Positions 50,422 to 57,852 of a stretch of 64,000 nt of DNA are shown here, in pieces (position 1 is the first letter of the stretch; each line of letters opens with the position of its first letter). Made by a program: the position numbers and the translations under genes. The notes under the pieces are model-generated. The model had not been told where the DNA came from. It did not search any database and saw only the letters and a program-made list of their open reading frames with translations. Source of the DNA: Kushneria sinocarnis (GTDB lineage Bacteria > Pseudomonadota > Gammaproteobacteria > Pseudomonadales > Halomonadaceae); NCBI RefSeq assembly GCF_003633775.1, contig NZ_RBIN01000001.1, positions 434,001-498,000 of the forward strand. Direction: 5' to 3'.

Positions 50422-50497
50422 GCCGGTGTAGCTCAGTCGGCAGAGCAACGCATTCGTAATGCGTAGGTCGGAGGTTCGAATCCTCTCACCGGCACCA
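50422..50497 (+). tRNA. tRNA-Thr (anticodon CGT)
   Basis: A complete 76-nt cloverleaf: acceptor GCCGGTG pairs with CACCGGC, D stem GCTC/GAGC, anticodon stem ACGCA/TGCGT with loop TTCGTAA, T arm GGAGG-TTCGAAT-CCTCT, and an encoded CCA. A TAGACT -10-like box lies at 50403-50408. The lower-GC island begins soon after, which fits the use of tRNA genes as insertion sites. Confidence 0.96.
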
Positions 50498-50759: not shown

Positions 50760-51068
50760 TTACCGCTTCTTTCCGGTGCTATTAATTCCTCCGCCTGATA
50801 TAGGCCAAACTGATTTAGGCCTTTTGTGTAAATCCTTTTTTAAACGCTTGTACATACCATCACTGACGTTCTTTTTGGTTCTTTCAGATGGGCTCGAAAG
50901 TTGAGCGTGTAATCTGAACAGTTTGCTTGTCACTTTTTTATCAAGTTTTCCGTTGAGAGCTGCCTTTTCTATAACGGCTCTGGCATTGATAGCCATGAGA
51001 AACCTGATCTCTTCACGGGTTATTTTTCCCGTATCTACATAATGCTGGACGATACTTTCCAGATTCAT
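50760..51068 (-). CDS. Small basic hypothetical protein at the end of the defence operon
   Basis: A 102-residue protein that I do not recognise. It starts MNLESIVQHYVDTGKITREE, continues as a helical segment with LMAINARAVIEKAALNGKLD, and ends in a lysine/arginine-rich tail (KRPKSVWPISGGGINSTGKK). It is 59 bases downstream of the GIY-YIG gene on the same strand and has the same AT-rich composition, so it may be a fourth member of that operon. A nucleic-acid-binding accessory role is only a guess from its charge. Confidence 0.5.
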   Translation of the reverse strand: MNLESIVQHYVDTGKITREEIRFLMAINARAVIEKAALNGKLDKKVTSKLFRLHAQLSSPSERTKKNVSDGMYKRLKKDLHKRPKSVWPISGGGINSTGKKR

Positions 51069-51127: not shown

Positions 51128-52438
51128 TTATAGTGTCTTGTCAGTGCTCTTCCGCAAAAGTTTGCCTGTTGTATTATCTATTCGATAATCAACAATGCTT
51201 CCATCAATGATTCGCCGTATCACTTCACGAGCGGTATCCAGCTCCACATCAAACCATTCTCGCGGTTTGTAAGTGCTGCCATCCTGCGAGCGCAATGTCA
51301 TATTCACTCGCTGCTGCCCTAACATGGCGTGTATTAAACGCTCAAACCTGTGCGGGTTAAAGTTATAGCATTCGAAGGTCGTGACGATTCTGACCGGCGC
51401 TTCAAGGAAGGTCCGGTCCTTGTCAGCATCAATGATGCGCGATTCAACGCTATGTTCGGTGTAGCCAATCTTGTAGAGATTGCGGATGGACTGGATTTTT
51501 GGGTTCTGGCTCAGGGATTGAAGAATGTATACCGCGCCAACACGATTATCGTGATGCGTGATGCCCTGTAACTCGTTGAAGGTGTTGTCGCGCTGGAGAA
51601 TCCGTCGTCCCGATTCATCCTTGTAAAGTGCTCGGGCCAAAGAGCGCAGCAACAGGTTGGATTCCGTGCCGTTGCTGAACACAACTCTCAGGCGCGGATT
51701 GAATTTTTTCCCCGCGCCAACGCTTTCTTTACCAGCCTGATCAGCAATACAGAGCATGCCATTAAGAATGAACATGTCTCCTTCGCTGATCTGCGATTCT
51801 TTCTGAAAAGACTTGGTCTCAAGCTCGCCAGCATTGAGTTGTTGATGCACCTTTTCGAACAACGTCTCGAAGCGATAGAAGTCGTCACAGTGTTTGCGCT
51901 GGGCAATATCCTCAGGCATATCCCGTTTTTCATAGCGAGGAACATGGCGAAGGTTGAAAAGACTCTCGTCTCCTGTGTCGAGCAGGCCCAGCGTATCGCT
52001 CGCAAGAATATCGTCCAGTGACATGACACTATTTTGAGAGGTCAACCGATGTGCGGCTTGAGGCTCTGGCTCGGTGGGCACTACATCGGTTGGCTGTGCC
52101 GGCATTGAAAAAGTATCAACGTCTTTCTGTCCCTGAGCAGGATGCAGAAGCCCGAACGCATCCCTATCCTCAAGTATGGCGACCTGGTCAGGATTGGCTC
52201 GAATGGCTGCCAGGCGTGTTCCGAGTTTGGCTTCTTCAAAGTCGTTGGCATCTCGATCAGGTTCATGGCCATGCCTTGCCATGAACTGCTCGATTTCCTG
52301 AAAGCAGGCCATGAGCCTTTGATCGCCACTGGGTATGGCCTGTCTGATTTTGACTTCCAATAAACCCAACGGGTCCGGTTCAGCAAAAATGTCACTGAGC
52401 GTCTTGCGCGATCCCCTGCCGGGGTTTGAGCGAATCAT
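51128..52438 (-). CDS. GIY-YIG nuclease-like protein (T5orf172/MUG113 type)
   Basis: A 436-residue protein. The C-terminal domain has the GIY-YIG pattern: VYIL at 303-306, LYKIGYT at 321-327, Arg334, Glu366 in HRFERLIHAML with His370, and EWF at 394-396. The N-terminal half has an HGHEP-type helical module (residues about 43-85) that resembles the end of the helicase next to it, and three copies of an I-x-x-D-x-LGLL-like motif (17-27, 88-98, 144-153). Its start overlaps the helicase stop by four bases (ATGA). It is the likely DNA-cutting subunit of a three-gene system with the helicase and methyltransferase. Confidence 0.8.
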   Translation of the reverse strand: MIRSNPGRGSRKTLSDIFAEPDPLGLLEVKIRQAIPSGDQRLMACFQEIEQFMARHGHEPDRDANDFEEAKLGTRLAAIRANPDQVAILEDRDAFGLLHPAQGQKDVDTFSMPAQPTDVVPTEPEPQAAHRLTSQNSVMSLDDILASDTLGLLDTGDESLFNLRHVPRYEKRDMPEDIAQRKHCDDFYRFETLFEKVHQQLNAGELETKSFQKESQISEGDMFILNGMLCIADQAGKESVGAGKKFNPRLRVVFSNGTESNLLLRSLARALYKDESGRRILQRDNTFNELQGITHHDNRVGAVYILQSLSQNPKIQSIRNLYKIGYTEHSVESRIIDADKDRTFLEAPVRIVTTFECYNFNPHRFERLIHAMLGQQRVNMTLRSQDGSTYKPREWFDVELDTAREVIRRIIDGSIVDYRIDNTTGKLLRKSTDKTL

Positions 52439-54531
52439 GACGCCATACTCCGGCCACGCTCCGCTTTCTTGTGCTTGATATACGCCAGTGCCTCGGCGTA
52501 GCGCACTTCAATATGGTTATCACTGTGAAGGTTGGGCTCTCGCCCATGTTGCTGTACGAACTCATTGATTCCTGGCCAGAGAATGACGGCTTCTTCTTCA
52601 CTCATCTGCACCCGGGAGCCGATCACCGTATCCTGAATGGTTTTCAGCACTGACGAAGTCACTGATTTGGACAGGATTTCATAAGCCCCCTGGAACGGGT
52701 TGATACGATCGATCAGATCGACATTGAGATGTTCAATGTTGATGAACTTGTCGCCCATTCTGACAAACTGGCGATTGCCGCTAGAGCTTCCGGTGCCCGG
52801 GGTTTCATCGTAGGCAGCACCATTTAAAGGGACGCCTTCCTGAGCGGTATCGTTTGTGGTCCCCGGATTATGATCAACGTTATATACACCCGTCGGTTCC
52901 TGAATGAGGGCATCTTTAGGCAGGTCTTCTTCATCGAACAGGCCACCGCCTGATCGGATCAGCATGGAGGTCAGCACCCCCTCGCGAAGCATTTCTCGCT
53001 CGTTGTCATCCAGCTCCGGGTAAAGCCGTTCAATGACCTTGGGCAGTTCTACCTGGTTAATCACTTCCGGCTCCGTCGTTTCAACGACGGCTGCAGTAGT
53101 GACGGAAGGCGCCTGGACCAGCGCCGCGACAATGTCGTCCTTGCCGCCATTGTTGAGGATATCCAGCAGCCTTGCCGACACTGGGGCTGCAGTGTCCTCG
53201 ATAACGACCGTACCGGGTTCGAGCGGCTCGCCTTGCTGCATGCGAGAGCGTGGCTTGAAGGTCACGCTGGGAGCCAGCACCTGCTCCATCAACAGCGAGA
53301 CCGTGATTGCCTTGAGCATATTGTTGACGCTGATACGCACGTCGTCATCTTCGGCGTCAGGCTGAGCGATCAGGTTGGTAAACTGGGCATGTACCTTGCC
53401 CGGATTATCCCGCGTGGCACGTCCGATAATCTGAATGATCTCGGTCATCGAGTTGCGATAGCCGATGGTCAATACATGTTCGCACCAGGGCCAGTCGAAC
53501 CCCTCCTTGGCCATGCCCAGCGCAATGATGATATCCATATCATCGGCAGATTTAATCTGACGTAGATACTCCACCACCTTCGGGCGCTGCAGAGAGTTGT
53601 CTTCTACCAGATTGGCGACCTTGAGCAATCGACCGCTGGCGTGGCGTACGGAAAAAATGCCGGTGGTCGCATCCTGCTGTTCCACGTTCCCCAGAATATC
53701 GAGAATGCGATCGACTTCGCCGTATTTGTCCTTGGTGGACTCACCGGAGTTCACGTTGGGGATATGAACGATGGTTTTTTGATCAGGGTTCAATACTTCA
53801 CTGACCGCATCGATATAGCGGTTTTTATAGAAGTGATAGCCGATGCCCAGTGATTTCAGATAGCGATAGCCGTTGAGCTGCTCGTAATAGGTGTACGTCA
53901 CCTTGTCGAAGCGCTCTTCATCCTCCGGGAGCAGGATGGGGGCAGCATCCCCGCGGAAATAGGAGCCCGTCATCGCCACGATGTGCGCGCTGGAGGCATT
54001 CATCAAGGTGTCGATCAACGCGCCGAGGCGGTTGCTCTCATCGGCCGACACATGATGAAACTCATCAATTGCCACCAGGGTGTGGTCAAATTCCTCGGGC
54101 GCAAGCCGATCGAAGGCAAAGCGCAGGGTGGCGTGGGTGCACACCAGAATGTGCTCCTCCGATTGGCGCATGAACCGACAGAACACCTCGACCTTGCCCT
54201 TGTCACTGCCCGCGCGACACAGGTTATTCTGATCGGCAATCTCCCAGTCGGCAAAGAAGCCCTGTCTGGTGAGATCGGTCTTACCAAACGAGCCACCGAT
54301 GCTCATCTCAGGCACGGCCACGATGACCTTGTGCAGCCCCTGTCGATGCAGTTTATCCAGTCCCAGGAACATCAGGGCGCGCGATTTTCCCGATGCTGGT
54401 GGCGCCTTCAAAAGCAGATACTGGCTGTTGCGCTTTTCAAAGGCGCGGGCCTGCATCTCGCGCATGCCCATGTCATTACTGGTGGTGCTCCCGCCAGTCC
54501 GTGCGTATTCAACTCTGATCAGATCGGCCAT
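52435..54531 (-). CDS. SF2 DEAD/DEAH-type helicase of the restriction-like operon
   Basis: A 698-residue superfamily 2 helicase or translocase. Walker A is APPASGKSR (43-51), motif II is DEFHH (156-160), motif III TGS (188-190) and motif VI QIIGRATR (367-374). After the two RecA-like domains is a long acidic linker, then a C-terminal module with WPGINEFVQQHGREP and helices that resemble part of the GIY-YIG protein. It starts three bases after the methyltransferase stop and overlaps the GIY-YIG gene, so all three are one translational unit. Its job is probably ATP-driven DNA movement before cleavage. Confidence 0.85.
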   Translation of the reverse strand: MADLIRVEYARTGGSTTSNDMGMREMQARAFEKRNSQYLLLKAPPASGKSRALMFLGLDKLHRQGLHKVIVAVPEMSIGGSFGKTDLTRQGFFADWEIADQNNLCRAGSDKGKVEVFCRFMRQSEEHILVCTHATLRFAFDRLAPEEFDHTLVAIDEFHHVSADESNRLGALIDTLMNASSAHIVAMTGSYFRGDAAPILLPEDEERFDKVTYTYYEQLNGYRYLKSLGIGYHFYKNRYIDAVSEVLNPDQKTIVHIPNVNSGESTKDKYGEVDRILDILGNVEQQDATTGIFSVRHASGRLLKVANLVEDNSLQRPKVVEYLRQIKSADDMDIIIALGMAKEGFDWPWCEHVLTIGYRNSMTEIIQIIGRATRDNPGKVHAQFTNLIAQPDAEDDDVRISVNNMLKAITVSLLMEQVLAPSVTFKPRSRMQQGEPLEPGTVVIEDTAAPVSARLLDILNNGGKDDIVAALVQAPSVTTAAVVETTEPEVINQVELPKVIERLYPELDDNEREMLREGVLTSMLIRSGGGLFDEEDLPKDALIQEPTGVYNVDHNPGTTNDTAQEGVPLNGAAYDETPGTGSSSGNRQFVRMGDKFINIEHLNVDLIDRINPFQGAYEILSKSVTSSVLKTIQDTVIGSRVQMSEEEAVILWPGINEFVQQHGREPNLHSDNHIEVRYAEALAYIKHKKAERGRSMAS

Positions 54532-54534
54532 GAA

Positions 54535-57291
54535 TTACGCCTCCACCCGGGTTTTGGGAGTGCGCGTCGTCTTGCGTTTTTCGACGGCCGATTTGGCACT
54601 CTTCTTCTCGGCGGCGATCAGGGTTTCATAGCGCGCCAGCAGATAGGTCTGGCGCTCCGCCATATCGCGGAAGGGTTTATCCCGATACAGCAGCTCAACG
54701 GCGACATCGAGCGCCTGATGAGCGGCCAGCAGGTCCTGTGGCATCAGGTCAGGATCGTAAAGCTCTGCCATGGTGCTGCCGGGATGGCATTCCCGGGCCA
54801 GCAGCACGTTGCGGCCCAGACGTTCAATTTCAGCCTTCTGCGCGTCGGTGGCATCCGGCCAGGGGAAGGTGTTGTAAACGATGGTGGCGGAGTAGCGGTA
54901 ACGGCTTTCCAAACGACCGCCCACCAGACGCAGCCAGTCCATGTGCAGGCGCGTTGAGAGAATAGCGAAGTCGTAATGCGTGCCGTTGGGAATGATTTGT
55001 ACAGCGTCATTTGCTATTACATCACTATTGAAAAAACCAACAGGGGCATAATAGCGGCGCTCGGATGTCACTCGGGGCACCAAAATATAGCTATCTGGAT
55101 TATTCAGGTCCCTGAATTGGTGGGGGCGCTCGGCGAGCTTCCTTGTTCCCGCATCGCTGCTTAAAAGCCTCTTTTCACGAACTTGCTCAACAAGATTTTT
55201 TACTGCTGGCATAGCTTCTATGTCATCAGCATGAGCATCGGCCAGCCACAGGCACCAACGCTCCTTACCTTTGATGAATTCATCAGCGCCTATTAGTCTT
55301 CTAATCCAGCGCTGTGCTGAAGGCTCAATGGCAAGTAAGGCATCACGCTCGTCAGTAGTCATGAGCAGATAACCACCATCGTTAGGCATATTGCCAAAAA
55401 GCATCGGTCTAGCACCTTTCAAGAAGGACTTTCTGCTTTCAGAAATGACCGTATTGCTTCCTCTAACCAAGTAAGGGCTAATATTATCTACAGTCTCTTT
55501 ATGCCACTGATCGTTTACTTTTTTATATATGCTTCTTTCTTTCTCATGATGCGTCAGCCCAACAACAATGACGTGCACGCCAGCATTTTTCTTTGCGCTA
55601 TTGCTCCAGCTAAAAGTCTGGTAAGCGAAACTTATTTTAGTGCCTTGTCGGATAATTGACGGCCAAAGCAGGCTAGCTTGCTTCCCTTGACAAAGGGAGT
55701 TGGTCGAGACGAAGGCAGCTTCAGTTGAGCCGGTACGACAATAGTTAGCCGCTAGATAGAACCAACAGGCCACGTAATCCAGAGACTTGTATTTTTTGAT
55801 GGCTTGACCCAGTACTGATTTCATCTCAGAAAGCTGTGCGTTACTACGATTACCGTGTCCAATAAAAGGAGGATTTCCGCAGATATAGATTTCGTAATCT
55901 TCATCTCGGGGGCAGATTGCCTGCCAGTCTTCTAACAAACTATTACCCAGCACCAGATTGCCGGATTGCTTGAGCGGCAGTGTGGGCTCGGCGTGGCCGA
56001 ACTCCGCTCTGAAAGCCATGTTCATCTGGTGCTCGACCAGCCACATCGACAGGATCGCGATTTCATGGGCGAAGTCGTCAATTTCGATGCCGTAGAACTG
56101 GCTCAGCCGAATGCCGCTCATGAACATTTCGTTCTGTCTGGAGACTTTCTCCAGCTCACGAAACACCGCCATTTCCAGTCGTCTTAGCTCCTTGTAAGCG
56201 ATGATCAGGAAGTTGCCGGAGCCCATGGCCGGGTCAAAGATGCGCAGACGTGTTAACCGAATCAGTAGTGCCTGAAGACGCTTGCGATTGCCACGAGCGC
56301 TTTTAAGCTCACTTGTGAGCTTTTCCAGAAACAGCGGCTGAATCACTTTCAGAATATTGGGCACGCTGGTGTAGTGCTGTCCGAAGGCGTCGCGGCTCTC
56401 TTCATCGACCACGGCCTGAAACATCGAGCCGAAAATATCCGGGTTGGTTTGTGACCAGTTGAGCTGGCCACACTCAATCATCATGCGTCGTGCCTTGGCG
56501 CGGATGCTTGGGACCGGTAGTTCCTGTGCGAAAAGGCCGCCGTTCACATAGGGGAACTGCGCCAGATGCGCTGGCAGGGTCGGGGCGCGTTCTTCCAACG
56601 GCTGGTTGAGCACGCGGAAGAGAGTAGTCAGTAGCTCGGGCAGTTCGTCACCATCTTCGCTACTGGCCTCAGCGATCAAGCGAGTAAAGGTGCCTTTGTC
56701 GAAGATCTCGGTGTCTTCCGCGAAGTAACAAAACAGCAGGCGAGTCAGAAAAACGTTGAGGGAGTGAAGCTGGTCGGGTGTCTGAAATTCGTTGCTTTCA
56801 CGCAGGCGCTCAAAGAGCTTGCCCATCTTGGCGGCTGCCTTGACGTCGGCACTGGCCTCGGGATATTTCTCGACACGCTCAAGCCCGGCCATGGGCGCAA
56901 AAAAGAGATAGTGTCCGGGCAGGTCAGCAAAGGCGCACTCGATGCGCTCATCCGTTTTGCTATCACGTGCAGTGAACTGCTCAAAATCGGTCACGATCTG
57001 GAAACGGGTCTTGTGTCGGGCGACCAGATCATCATCTGCCAGCCTTTGAAGCGCTTCATGAACGCTTTCCCCGACGTTGGGCGGCATGAAGTACAGCCAG
57101 TTCTTGAGCCCTACATGTCCCTCTGCCTGACGTGTTGCCACGTTGCGGCTGCTACCGGTGCGTAGCTGGGTGATGGTTGCCTTGGGGAAGCCATAGGCAT
57201 CAAGGAAGGAATAGATGAAGTCTTCATGACTGGCGCCACTTGCCGTTGCGGCTGCCAGAGCTTCCATGCAGTGAACCTGGTTGAACGCCAT
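54535..57291 (-). CDS. MmeI-like DNA adenine methyltransferase with target-recognition domain
   Basis: A 918-residue DNA methyltransferase. The SAM motif is FDPAMGSGNF (352-361) and the catalytic NPPF is at 473-476, as in N6-adenine enzymes; FGQHYTSVPNILKVIQPLF (303-321) is an MmeI-family stretch. The target-recognition region covers about 500-770 and the C-terminal domain follows (FPWPDATDAQKAEIERLG). Unlike MmeI itself, I see no D-x-ExK nuclease motif in the first 120 residues, so cutting must come from another subunit. AGGGG precedes ATG 57291. The recognition region is clearly more AT-rich than both ends of the gene. Confidence 0.88.
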   Translation of the reverse strand: MAFNQVHCMEALAAATASGASHEDFIYSFLDAYGFPKATITQLRTGSSRNVATRQAEGHVGLKNWLYFMPPNVGESVHEALQRLADDDLVARHKTRFQIVTDFEQFTARDSKTDERIECAFADLPGHYLFFAPMAGLERVEKYPEASADVKAAAKMGKLFERLRESNEFQTPDQLHSLNVFLTRLLFCYFAEDTEIFDKGTFTRLIAEASSEDGDELPELLTTLFRVLNQPLEERAPTLPAHLAQFPYVNGGLFAQELPVPSIRAKARRMMIECGQLNWSQTNPDIFGSMFQAVVDEESRDAFGQHYTSVPNILKVIQPLFLEKLTSELKSARGNRKRLQALLIRLTRLRIFDPAMGSGNFLIIAYKELRRLEMAVFRELEKVSRQNEMFMSGIRLSQFYGIEIDDFAHEIAILSMWLVEHQMNMAFRAEFGHAEPTLPLKQSGNLVLGNSLLEDWQAICPRDEDYEIYICGNPPFIGHGNRSNAQLSEMKSVLGQAIKKYKSLDYVACWFYLAANYCRTGSTEAAFVSTNSLCQGKQASLLWPSIIRQGTKISFAYQTFSWSNSAKKNAGVHVIVVGLTHHEKERSIYKKVNDQWHKETVDNISPYLVRGSNTVISESRKSFLKGARPMLFGNMPNDGGYLLMTTDERDALLAIEPSAQRWIRRLIGADEFIKGKERWCLWLADAHADDIEAMPAVKNLVEQVREKRLLSSDAGTRKLAERPHQFRDLNNPDSYILVPRVTSERRYYAPVGFFNSDVIANDAVQIIPNGTHYDFAILSTRLHMDWLRLVGGRLESRYRYSATIVYNTFPWPDATDAQKAEIERLGRNVLLARECHPGSTMAELYDPDLMPQDLLAAHQALDVAVELLYRDKPFRDMAERQTYLLARYETLIAAEKKSAKSAVEKRKTTRTPKTRVEA

Positions 57292-57313
57292 TTTGTGCCC
57301 CTGAATAATGTAA

Positions 57314-57329
57314 CTAAAGTTTTCTTTAG
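57314..57329. promoter_or_regulatory. Inverted repeat in the defence-operon promoter region
   Basis: CTAAAG-TTTT-CTTTAG lies 23 bases before the methyltransferase start, with a further CTTTAG at 57363-57368. A TTGCAA-like -35 element lies between. It may be an operator or part of the leader. No regulator gene is in the operon. Confidence 0.4.
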
Positions 57330-57458
57330 ATTTCAGGTTGCAACGGCTTTAAGATTGAATAACTTTAGGCAATTCTGCAGTTATTTTTTAATCGCATAAA
57401 AATCAAATGCTTATAATACTCTGACTGTGCATTCAACCAACGCCATACCGGGAGCCCA

Positions 57459-57694
57459 ATGAACATCGAACGACTCGGCAACGGGCTGGCGTTTTTAAAG
57501 GAGGCCGAGCGGCTCAAGAGCGTGCTGCGCACGGCGTAACCACCACCGGGCGGCAGGAGGATACGGCGGCGCATACGTGGCGGCTATGTCTGATGGCGAT
57601 GACGTTCGAGCGCGAGCTGGCGCCGCTGGACATGACGCGCATTCTGGAATTCTGCGTGTTGCACGATCTGGGTGAGGCGATCCACGGCGATTAG
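57459..57694 (+). pseudogene. HD-domain hydrolase remnant, frameshifted and truncated
   Basis: ATG 57459 opens MNIERLGNGLAFLKEAERLK and stops at a TAA after RTA. Restoring one base there continues TTTGRQEDTAAHTWRLCLMA and then LEFCVLHDLGEAIHGD, ending in a TAG at 57692-57694. The H...HD pattern (AAHTW, LHDLGEAIHGD) is that of YfbR-like HD hydrolases, whose C-terminal half of about 100 residues is missing. The truncation point abuts the AbiEi-like remnant, so it is probably a recombination junction at the island edge. Confidence 0.8.
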
Positions 57695-57852
57695 CTCGGC
57701 ATAGGTGAGAAGCGGTGAGGCCATGGCGCCTGTCTCGCCGGTATCGTGCTGCCGTCATGCTGATCAGTCTCCCAGGTCCGTAACTTGCCCGGGAGGCCGA
57801 TTTCCCGTGCAAAGGCTTCAAGCGCTGTCCGTGCAACGGTCTGTGCGTCCAT
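57691..57852 (-). pseudogene. Probable N-terminal remnant of an AbiEi-type antitoxin
   Basis: A 53-residue frame starting MDAQTVARTALEAFAREIGL and then losing conserved character. The opening resembles type IV antitoxins (AbiEi), which are normally much longer; no AbiEii toxin is present. A perfect 12-bp inverted repeat just upstream fits the known negative autoregulation of AbiEi through inverted repeats. The 3' end overlaps the HD remnant by four bases. Family call is by resemblance of about 25 residues only. Confidence 0.4.

What the first reader, a model, noticed from the sequence alone, without database searches (positions are those of the whole stretch)
51128..57291. Three-gene MmeI-like methyltransferase, SF2 helicase and GIY-YIG operon: candidate split restriction system
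Type ISP enzymes hold nuclease, helicase, methyltransferase and recognition domain in one chain. Here the same functions appear as three coupled genes, with a GIY-YIG fold instead of a PD-(D/E)xK nuclease. The methyltransferase has its own recognition domain and no visible nuclease motif. I do not recognise the set as BREX, DISARM or a classical type I system, whose other core genes are absent.
Basis: partly seen in the sequence, partly recalled or inferred. Interest (0 to 1): 0.72.

Follow-up and report, generated by a model that had tools for sequence, protein, structure and literature searches.

The report
Split MmeI-type restriction operon (DnmA-YeeB-YeeC family)
This is a real, intact three-gene cassette, probably a phage-defence restriction-modification system in which the cutting job has moved from the methylating enzyme to a separate motor and nuclease, and it belongs to a widespread operon family already described in Bacillus subtilis whose mechanism is still unproven.

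Summary
The set is not new: it is the dnmA(yeeA)-yeeB-yeeC family of Bacillus subtilis, described in print as nuclease-less MmeI homologues followed by helicase and nuclease genes and proposed as a Type I-like restriction system. My survey fits: the MmeI nuclease triad D/E/K is kept in 0 of 39 methyltransferases beside helicase and GIY-YIG genes (36 lack it, 3 have gaps there) and in 45 of 48 without them (3 gaps). New details: helicase tail and nuclease head share a module of about 43 residues; recognition residues predict 5'-GAGRAC-3'; the low-GC cassette lies by a tRNA-Thr where a genome of the same genus carries a 26-kb island with Type I restriction genes and an integrase. Best reading: a horizontally acquired, intact, translocation-coupled restriction-modification system. 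Restriction is inferred: B. subtilis showed none, while Vibrio crassostreae deletions reportedly raised phage sensitivity. New member of a known kind.

The parts
54535..57291 (-). MmeI-family DNA methyltransferase with its own target recognition domain and a degenerate N-terminal nuclease domain (DnmA/YeeA-like), 918 aa
57079..57117 (-). residues 59-71 (HVGLKNWLYFMPP), the place of the lost D...ExK nuclease motif
   Evidence: alignment to MmeI 5hr4 and to 70 relatives
55522..56304 (-). MmeI_Mtase domain (residues 330-590); motif I DPAMGSGNF and motif IV NPPF present
54853..55458 (-). MmeI_TRD (residues 612-813); base-reading residues predict GAGRAC
52435..54531 (-). SF2 helicase (YeeB-like), 698 aa; GKS of Walker A, DEFH and QIIGR invariant in 20 of 20 aligned
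52459..52587 (-). helicase C-terminal module (residues 649-691) shared with the nuclease head
   Evidence: hhalign probability 96, E 4e-9; 0 of 200 column shuffles reach the score
51128..52438 (-). T5orf172/GIY-YIG protein (YeeC-like), 436 aa
52184..52312 (-). nuclease N-terminal module (residues 43-85) shared with the helicase tail
51149..51550 (-). GIY-YIG domain (about residues 297-430); G301, Y304, K323, G325, R334, E366, H370 and E394-W395-F396 invariant in 20 of 20
50422..50497 (+). tRNA-Thr (CGT) at the island edge; integration site in a genome of the same genus
57292..57460 (.). AT-rich (35.5% GC) region upstream of the operon, presumed promoter region; the scan found no minus-strand sigma-70-like site

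Best explanation
A horizontally acquired split restriction-modification system of the DnmA-YeeB-YeeC family. Shown: three intact genes; the methyltransferase has lost the MmeI nuclease site while the partner helicase and GIY-YIG protein keep their signature residues. Inferred: the methyltransferase reads an asymmetric 6-bp site (predicted GAGRAC), methylates one strand of host DNA and is also the recognition subunit for restriction; at unmodified sites it recruits or loads the helicase, which moves along DNA with the GIY-YIG nuclease attached, perhaps through the module they share, and cutting occurs when a motor is blocked or meets another. Because only one strand is modified, replication leaves one daughter site bare, so a two-site (head-to-head) requirement as in Type ISP and Type III is the likely self-protection.
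For: Complete gene set, close spacing and synteny. Nuclease triad: kept in 0 of 23 aligned rows with helicase and GIY-YIG (22 lack it, 1 gap; the window is one of the 22) and in 45 of 48 rows without (3 gaps); kept in 0 of 8 second-subfamily loci and 0 of 8 plasmid loci (6 lack it, 2 gaps). The two states are the two sides of one branch with SH-aLRT 100. Signature residues invariant. Shared helicase-nuclease module. Low GC and tRNA-Thr site that takes restriction islands in a congener. Passages of Fernandez 2023: conserved synteny, more defence-family genes nearby than in random regions, and V. crassostreae dnmA and yeeB deletions raising sensitivity to some phages.
Against: B. subtilis dnmA-yeeB-yeeC showed no effect on transformation or on three phages, and its motif is not avoided by phages. 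No activity data exist for this cassette. The nuclease model is of modest confidence (pLDDT 72, pTM 0.38) and Foldseek listed no GIY-YIG structure among its best 50. Position 752 of the MmeI code, Thr there, is Val here. No integrase or second tRNA repeat lies in the window and the right border of the insertion is not established. Docking through the module, translocation and the two-site rule are shown nowhere here.
Confidence: 0.72

Rival explanations
1. An orphan methyltransferase with a restriction relic: methylation persists for gene regulation while helicase and nuclease no longer restrict, as concluded for B. subtilis.
For: Nye 2020 and Fernandez 2023 found no restriction in B. subtilis (passages).
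Against: All three window genes are intact with signature residues kept; Fernandez 2023 notes that B. subtilis YeeB and YeeC lack stretches present in V. crassostreae. Selection on the window genes was not measured.
Confidence: 0.16
2. A methylation-guided defence that does not cut the invader outright, for example blocking replication as BREX does or acting abortively, with the GIY-YIG protein as a late effector.
For: One-strand modification of an asymmetric site is shared with BREX (passage); Fernandez 2023 argues that any restriction by this cluster must differ from canonical systems.
Against: A GIY-YIG-type gene follows the helicase in 23 of 23 loci, and none of ten neighbouring ORFs matches a PADLOC model, BREX genes included.
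Confidence: 0.09
3. Three unrelated neighbours thrown together by chance.
For: None found.
Against: Same order and strand in 23 of 80 loci and in the 8 plasmid regions opened.
Confidence: 0.01

Closest known systems
B. subtilis dnmA(yeeA)-yeeB-yeeC (Nye 2020, Fernandez 2023; passages seen)
   Same: Same three families in the same order: nuclease-less MmeI-like methyltransferase, helicase, T5orf172/GIY-YIG
   Different: B. subtilis methylates GACGAG and showed no restriction; this one is predicted to read GAGRAC. The B. subtilis proteins themselves were not compared here
Type IIL MmeI (PDB 5hr4)
   Same: Aligns over about 870 residues through methyltransferase, spacer, TRD and C-terminal domains
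   Different: MmeI carries a PD-(D/E)xK nuclease in the same chain; here D, E and K are lost and two partner genes follow
Type ISP LlaGI / LlaBIII
   Same: Same set of functions; the helicase C-half matches both weakly (E 0.004-0.005)
   Different: Single chain with an Mrr-like nuclease (passage); here three chains with a GIY-YIG-type nuclease
Type I HsdRMS
   Same: Restriction and modification in separate chains
   Different: Motor and nuclease are separate chains here, and the TRD is inside the methyltransferase

Membership tests
DnmA-YeeB-YeeC operon family | MmeI-homologous methyltransferase lacking the nuclease motif | tested here: met
DnmA-YeeB-YeeC operon family | SF2 helicase at +1 and T5orf172/GIY-YIG gene at +2 downstream | tested here: met
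   definition from passages of Fernandez 2023
DnmA-YeeB-YeeC operon family | m6A methylation of an asymmetric site by the first gene | not testable with these tools
   catalytic motifs I and IV present; only a predicted site
DnmA-YeeB-YeeC operon family | Sequence kinship of helicase and nuclease to B. subtilis YeeB and YeeC themselves | not tested
   no B. subtilis protein was at hand under its name; T5orf172 and MmeI_Mtase models do ring in the B. subtilis control genome
Type IIL MmeI restriction-modification enzyme | PD-(D/E)xK nuclease in the same chain | tested here: not met
Type ISP restriction-modification enzyme | Nuclease, helicase, methyltransferase and TRD in one chain | tested here: not met
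   three ORFs
BREX | PglX together with PglZ and BrxC | tested here: not met
   best PglX model 28.6 bits against a cut-off of 900; ten neighbouring ORFs match no PADLOC model
DISARM | DrmA, DrmB, DrmC with the methyltransferase | tested here: not met
   DrmMI matches the methyltransferase (119.9 bits, against 990.6 for the Type IIG model) and DrmA the helicase at 9.8 bits only; no neighbouring ORF matches a PADLOC model
GIY-YIG nuclease superfamily | GIY and YIG strands with the conserved Arg and Glu | tested here: met
   T5orf172 and MUG113 over cut-off, residues invariant in 20 of 20
GIY-YIG nuclease superfamily | GIY-YIG fold by structure comparison | tested here: inconclusive
   no match with E <= 0.001 for the whole model

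The most novel reading that the evidence does not exclude
The module of about 43 residues that occurs both at the helicase C-terminus and at the nuclease N-terminus is a coupling device: the GIY-YIG protein rides on, or is handed over by, the motor through matching modules, docked on the dead nuclease domain of the methyltransferase. This would be a translocation-coupled restriction enzyme that cuts with GIY-YIG, a mechanism not known to me for any restriction system, arisen by one exchange between an in-chain and a partner nuclease (the tree allows one change; its direction is not determined).
Probability: 0.3. Interest if true: 0.62.

Novelty: new member of a known kind. Interest (0 to 1): 0.36.

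Why it matters
The operon family is widespread, seen here in Pseudomonadota, Bacillota, Actinomycetota and Cyanobacteriota records, yet in the papers seen its restriction mechanism is unproven, and PADLOC's best model calls the nuclease-less enzyme a Type IIG restriction enzyme-methyltransferase. An intact cassette with a predicted recognition motif, and a specific candidate coupling module to delete, make the open question of whether and how these operons restrict directly testable.

Tried and rejected
Type IIL enzyme acting alone: rejected, nuclease triad lost. BREX, DISARM, Type I: rejected on weak model matches and neighbours without defence models. The small ORF 50760-51068 as a fourth component: no significant family match, no hit at E 1e-3 in the 120 loci then held except those of its own genome and none in 18 other genomes. 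A second copy of the tRNA end in the window: none, so no att pair or excision is claimed; the window's right flank was not found beside the tRNA in congeners. Foldseek of the nuclease model: no match with E <= 0.001; of the helicase model: generic SF2 helicases, EcoR124I HsdR among them, not discriminating. Pfam on the shared module: only an insignificant match of the nuclease half to HA, helicase associated domain (E 0.12).

Literature: Morgan 2009 and the paper I took for the V. crassostreae study (DOI from recall) are not held, so both are cited second-hand. Eight searches, whose listings were capped at 20 in three cases, listed no functional study of the set besides the two B. subtilis papers; PMC9997735 mentions yeeA, yeeB and yeeC as restriction-modification genes that vary in Klebsiella (passage).

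Limits of the counts: of 80 loci, ten with a methyltransferase ORF under 700 aa (L057, L064, L113-L120) were left out of the triad count; eight second-subfamily loci were fetched of twelve genomes with an unbroken one, and they are kin (68-93% identical); eight plasmid regions were opened of 263 records. Relatives were found with patterns from the window's own methyltransferase, so the sample leans to its kin. L071 is a long branch in the tree.

Full report
Observation. Pfam identifies an MmeI-type methyltransferase with all five MmeI domains, a helicase, and a T5orf172/MUG113 (GIY-YIG class) protein. MmeI itself (PDB 5hr4) aligns with residues 24-893 at E 1.7e-192, and its nuclease stretch DLFWPGILLIEMK reads GLKNWLYFMPP here. 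The genome has no second match to MmeI_Mtase or T5orf172 at E 1e-3. Ten neighbouring ORFs from 44.4 to 61.5 kb are ordinary (MFS, Usp, HGLS, DUF202, GntR/FCD, TctC and others) and match no PADLOC model.

What is known. The set is the dnmA(yeeA)-yeeB-yeeC family. In the passages seen, Nye 2020 (PMC7261158) says that DnmA was placed among MmeI homologues that lack the endonuclease motif and are flanked by yeeB- and yeeC-like genes, and that a Type I-like system had been suggested, citing Morgan 2009; it found nearly the same transformation with and without dnmA. Fernandez 2023 (PMC9973331, passages and abstract) reports the helicase and T5orf172 families at the first and second position downstream across species, no protection of B. 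subtilis from three phages, and, citing another study, that deletion of the V. crassostreae dnmA and yeeB homologues raised sensitivity to some phages. Morgan 2009 was not held and the V. crassostreae paper was not seen.

Own survey. One search kept 80 loci encoding a relative of the methyltransferase. Helicase and GIY-YIG genes are found with it in 23 of 80, all on the same strand and in the same order. In 11 of these 23 the helicase and nuclease genes overlap by 4 bases, as in the window; the methyltransferase-helicase gap is -8 to +66 bases in 20 of 23, and 719 to 1694 bases in three. After dropping ten loci with ORFs under 700 aa, 70 loci plus the window were aligned. With helicase and GIY-YIG: 22 lack the D/E/K triad and 1 has a gap in it (L061). 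Without them: 45 keep it and 3 have gaps. Eight of eight second-subfamily loci lack it; of eight plasmid loci six lack it and two have gaps (L168, which has no N-terminus, and L170). So 0 of 39 split enzymes keep it. The register of this stretch shifts between alignments, but no split row has D-x8-14-[EQ]xK there. On a quick tree of 69 rows split and fused enzymes are the two sides of one branch with SH-aLRT 100: one change suffices, its direction is open, and the sample is biased.

Distribution. Helicase matches at E 1e-3 occur in 32 of 275 genomes of the family, the window's own included; of these two are fragments or broken (G141, G212) and three are weak (G161, G264, G274). None of nine other genomes of the genus has one. 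In the class of L075's genome (an Alkalibacterium, Bacillota) 9 of 398 genomes match, eight strongly, two of these with a stop in the frame. Of 72,556 plasmid records 263 match, 148 of them over at least 80% of the helicase, 118 on conjugative plasmids; some are short fragments. In the 8 plasmid regions opened the order methyltransferase, helicase, third gene holds; the third is annotated GIY-YIG in seven and hypothetical in one, L141 (which the nuclease-module model matches); L168 has its methyltransferase in pieces and L170 a toxin-antitoxin pair in between. They come from Pseudomonadota, Bacillota, Actinomycetota and Cyanobacteriota. Of 50,697 phage records two match, by a short fragment.

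Anatomy. In 20 aligned operons the helicase keeps GKS of Walker A, DEFH and QIIGR, and the nuclease keeps G301, Y304, K323, G325, R334, E366, H370 and EWF. The predicted nuclease model has a helical head (38-92), a middle beta region and the GIY-YIG region, with modest confidence (pLDDT 72, pTM 0.38). Helicase tail (649-691) and nuclease head (43-85) are the same module: hhalign probability 96, E 4e-9, against under 1 for three other pairings; 0 of 200 column shuffles of the nuclease head reach the score, and blocks outside the module reach at most 3. In eight further operons (three of them near kin of the model's sequences) each model's best matches outside its own protein are the partner's module in all eight, but weakly: E 7e-7 to 0.024 for the nuclease model on helicases, 1e-5 to 0.08 for the helicase model on nucleases, and no better than 1.2 on methyltransferases. 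The nearest Pfam model is HA, helicase associated domain, not significant (E 0.12). I take it as a candidate coupling or DNA-binding module; that is inference.

Predicted specificity. PMC4833311 (PLoS Biol 2016; passages and one section) gives the base-reading residues of MmeI. In MmeI numbering the window has D723 and R737 (position 1, G), F642 and M645 (position 2, A), R751 and D773 (position 3, G), A774 and R810 (position 4, R), E806 and R808 (position 6, C): 5'-GAGRAC-3', methylated at position 5. Positions 3 and 6 are the firmest, position 1 the weakest; residue 752 differs from MmeI (V for T), and other residues can matter, as that paper warns.

Setting. The three genes have 50-55% GC and their edges 36-43%, against 64-68% in the flanks; the operon ends 630 bases from a tRNA-Thr. 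In G125, the genome of the genus that matches best here, homology stops just past the same tRNA and a 52-base exact copy of the tRNA end follows 26 kb later. Between them lie a phage-type integrase and HsdR, HsdS, N6_Mtase (HsdM-like), GmrSD and MTES_1575 genes. So this site takes up restriction cargo in a congener. The window has no second repeat and no integrase among the ORFs tested, and its right flank was not found near that site in congeners, so the right border is not fixed. No minus-strand sigma-70-like site was found upstream.

Mechanism. Most likely: the methyltransferase modifies one strand of host sites and doubles as recognition subunit; helicase and GIY-YIG nuclease destroy unmodified DNA by translocation-coupled cutting. 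Gene content and lost and kept residues are shown; acquisition is well supported; recruitment, translocation, two-site rule and cutting are inferred from Type ISP and Type III logic (passages). The relic reading stays open because of B. subtilis.

Verdict. Observation confirmed; interpretation partly right; new member of a known, functionally unresolved kind.

Noticed in passing
L087:10798-11441; L061:2878-3509; L170:5304-5833; L059:10667-12322: The slot between methyltransferase and helicase repeatedly holds extra genes: toxin-antitoxin-like pairs (Gp49/HI1420-type, PIN/HicB-like, RelE/ParE by annotation) or a Schlafen-AlbA_2 protein.
   Followed up: partly
L143-L150 (second subfamily in the window's family): In six of eight second-subfamily operons the same slot holds a 333-336 aa gene (RhuM family by Pfam in L148; the others judged by their like start), and in L144 a PDDEXK_4 nuclease gene.
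   Followed up: partly
G125:C1:360851-386940 (L133, L134): A genome of the same genus carries a 26-kb island at the same tRNA-Thr with integrase, 52-base repeat and HsdR, HsdS, N6_Mtase, GmrSD and MTES_1575 genes.
   Followed up: yes
Acinetobacter plasmid records, e.g. H86-H94: Short pieces (residues 1-162 of the helicase, 23%) recur in Acinetobacter plasmids; a paper names yeeA/yeeB/yeeC genes inside Tn2006 and Tn2009 beside a carbapenemase gene (passage). Whether these are the same pieces was not tested; described only.
   Followed up: no
window 57460-57700: Looks like a frame-broken remnant of a gene resembling an HD-domain protein (my reading, not tested).
   Followed up: no
window 50760-51068: 102-aa ORF downstream of the nuclease gene without significant family match or relative in 18 other genomes.
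   Followed up: yes
window 54535-57291: PADLOC's Type IIG REase-MTase model scores the nuclease-less methyltransferase at 990.6 bits, so automatic annotation could call it a complete restriction enzyme.
   Followed up: no
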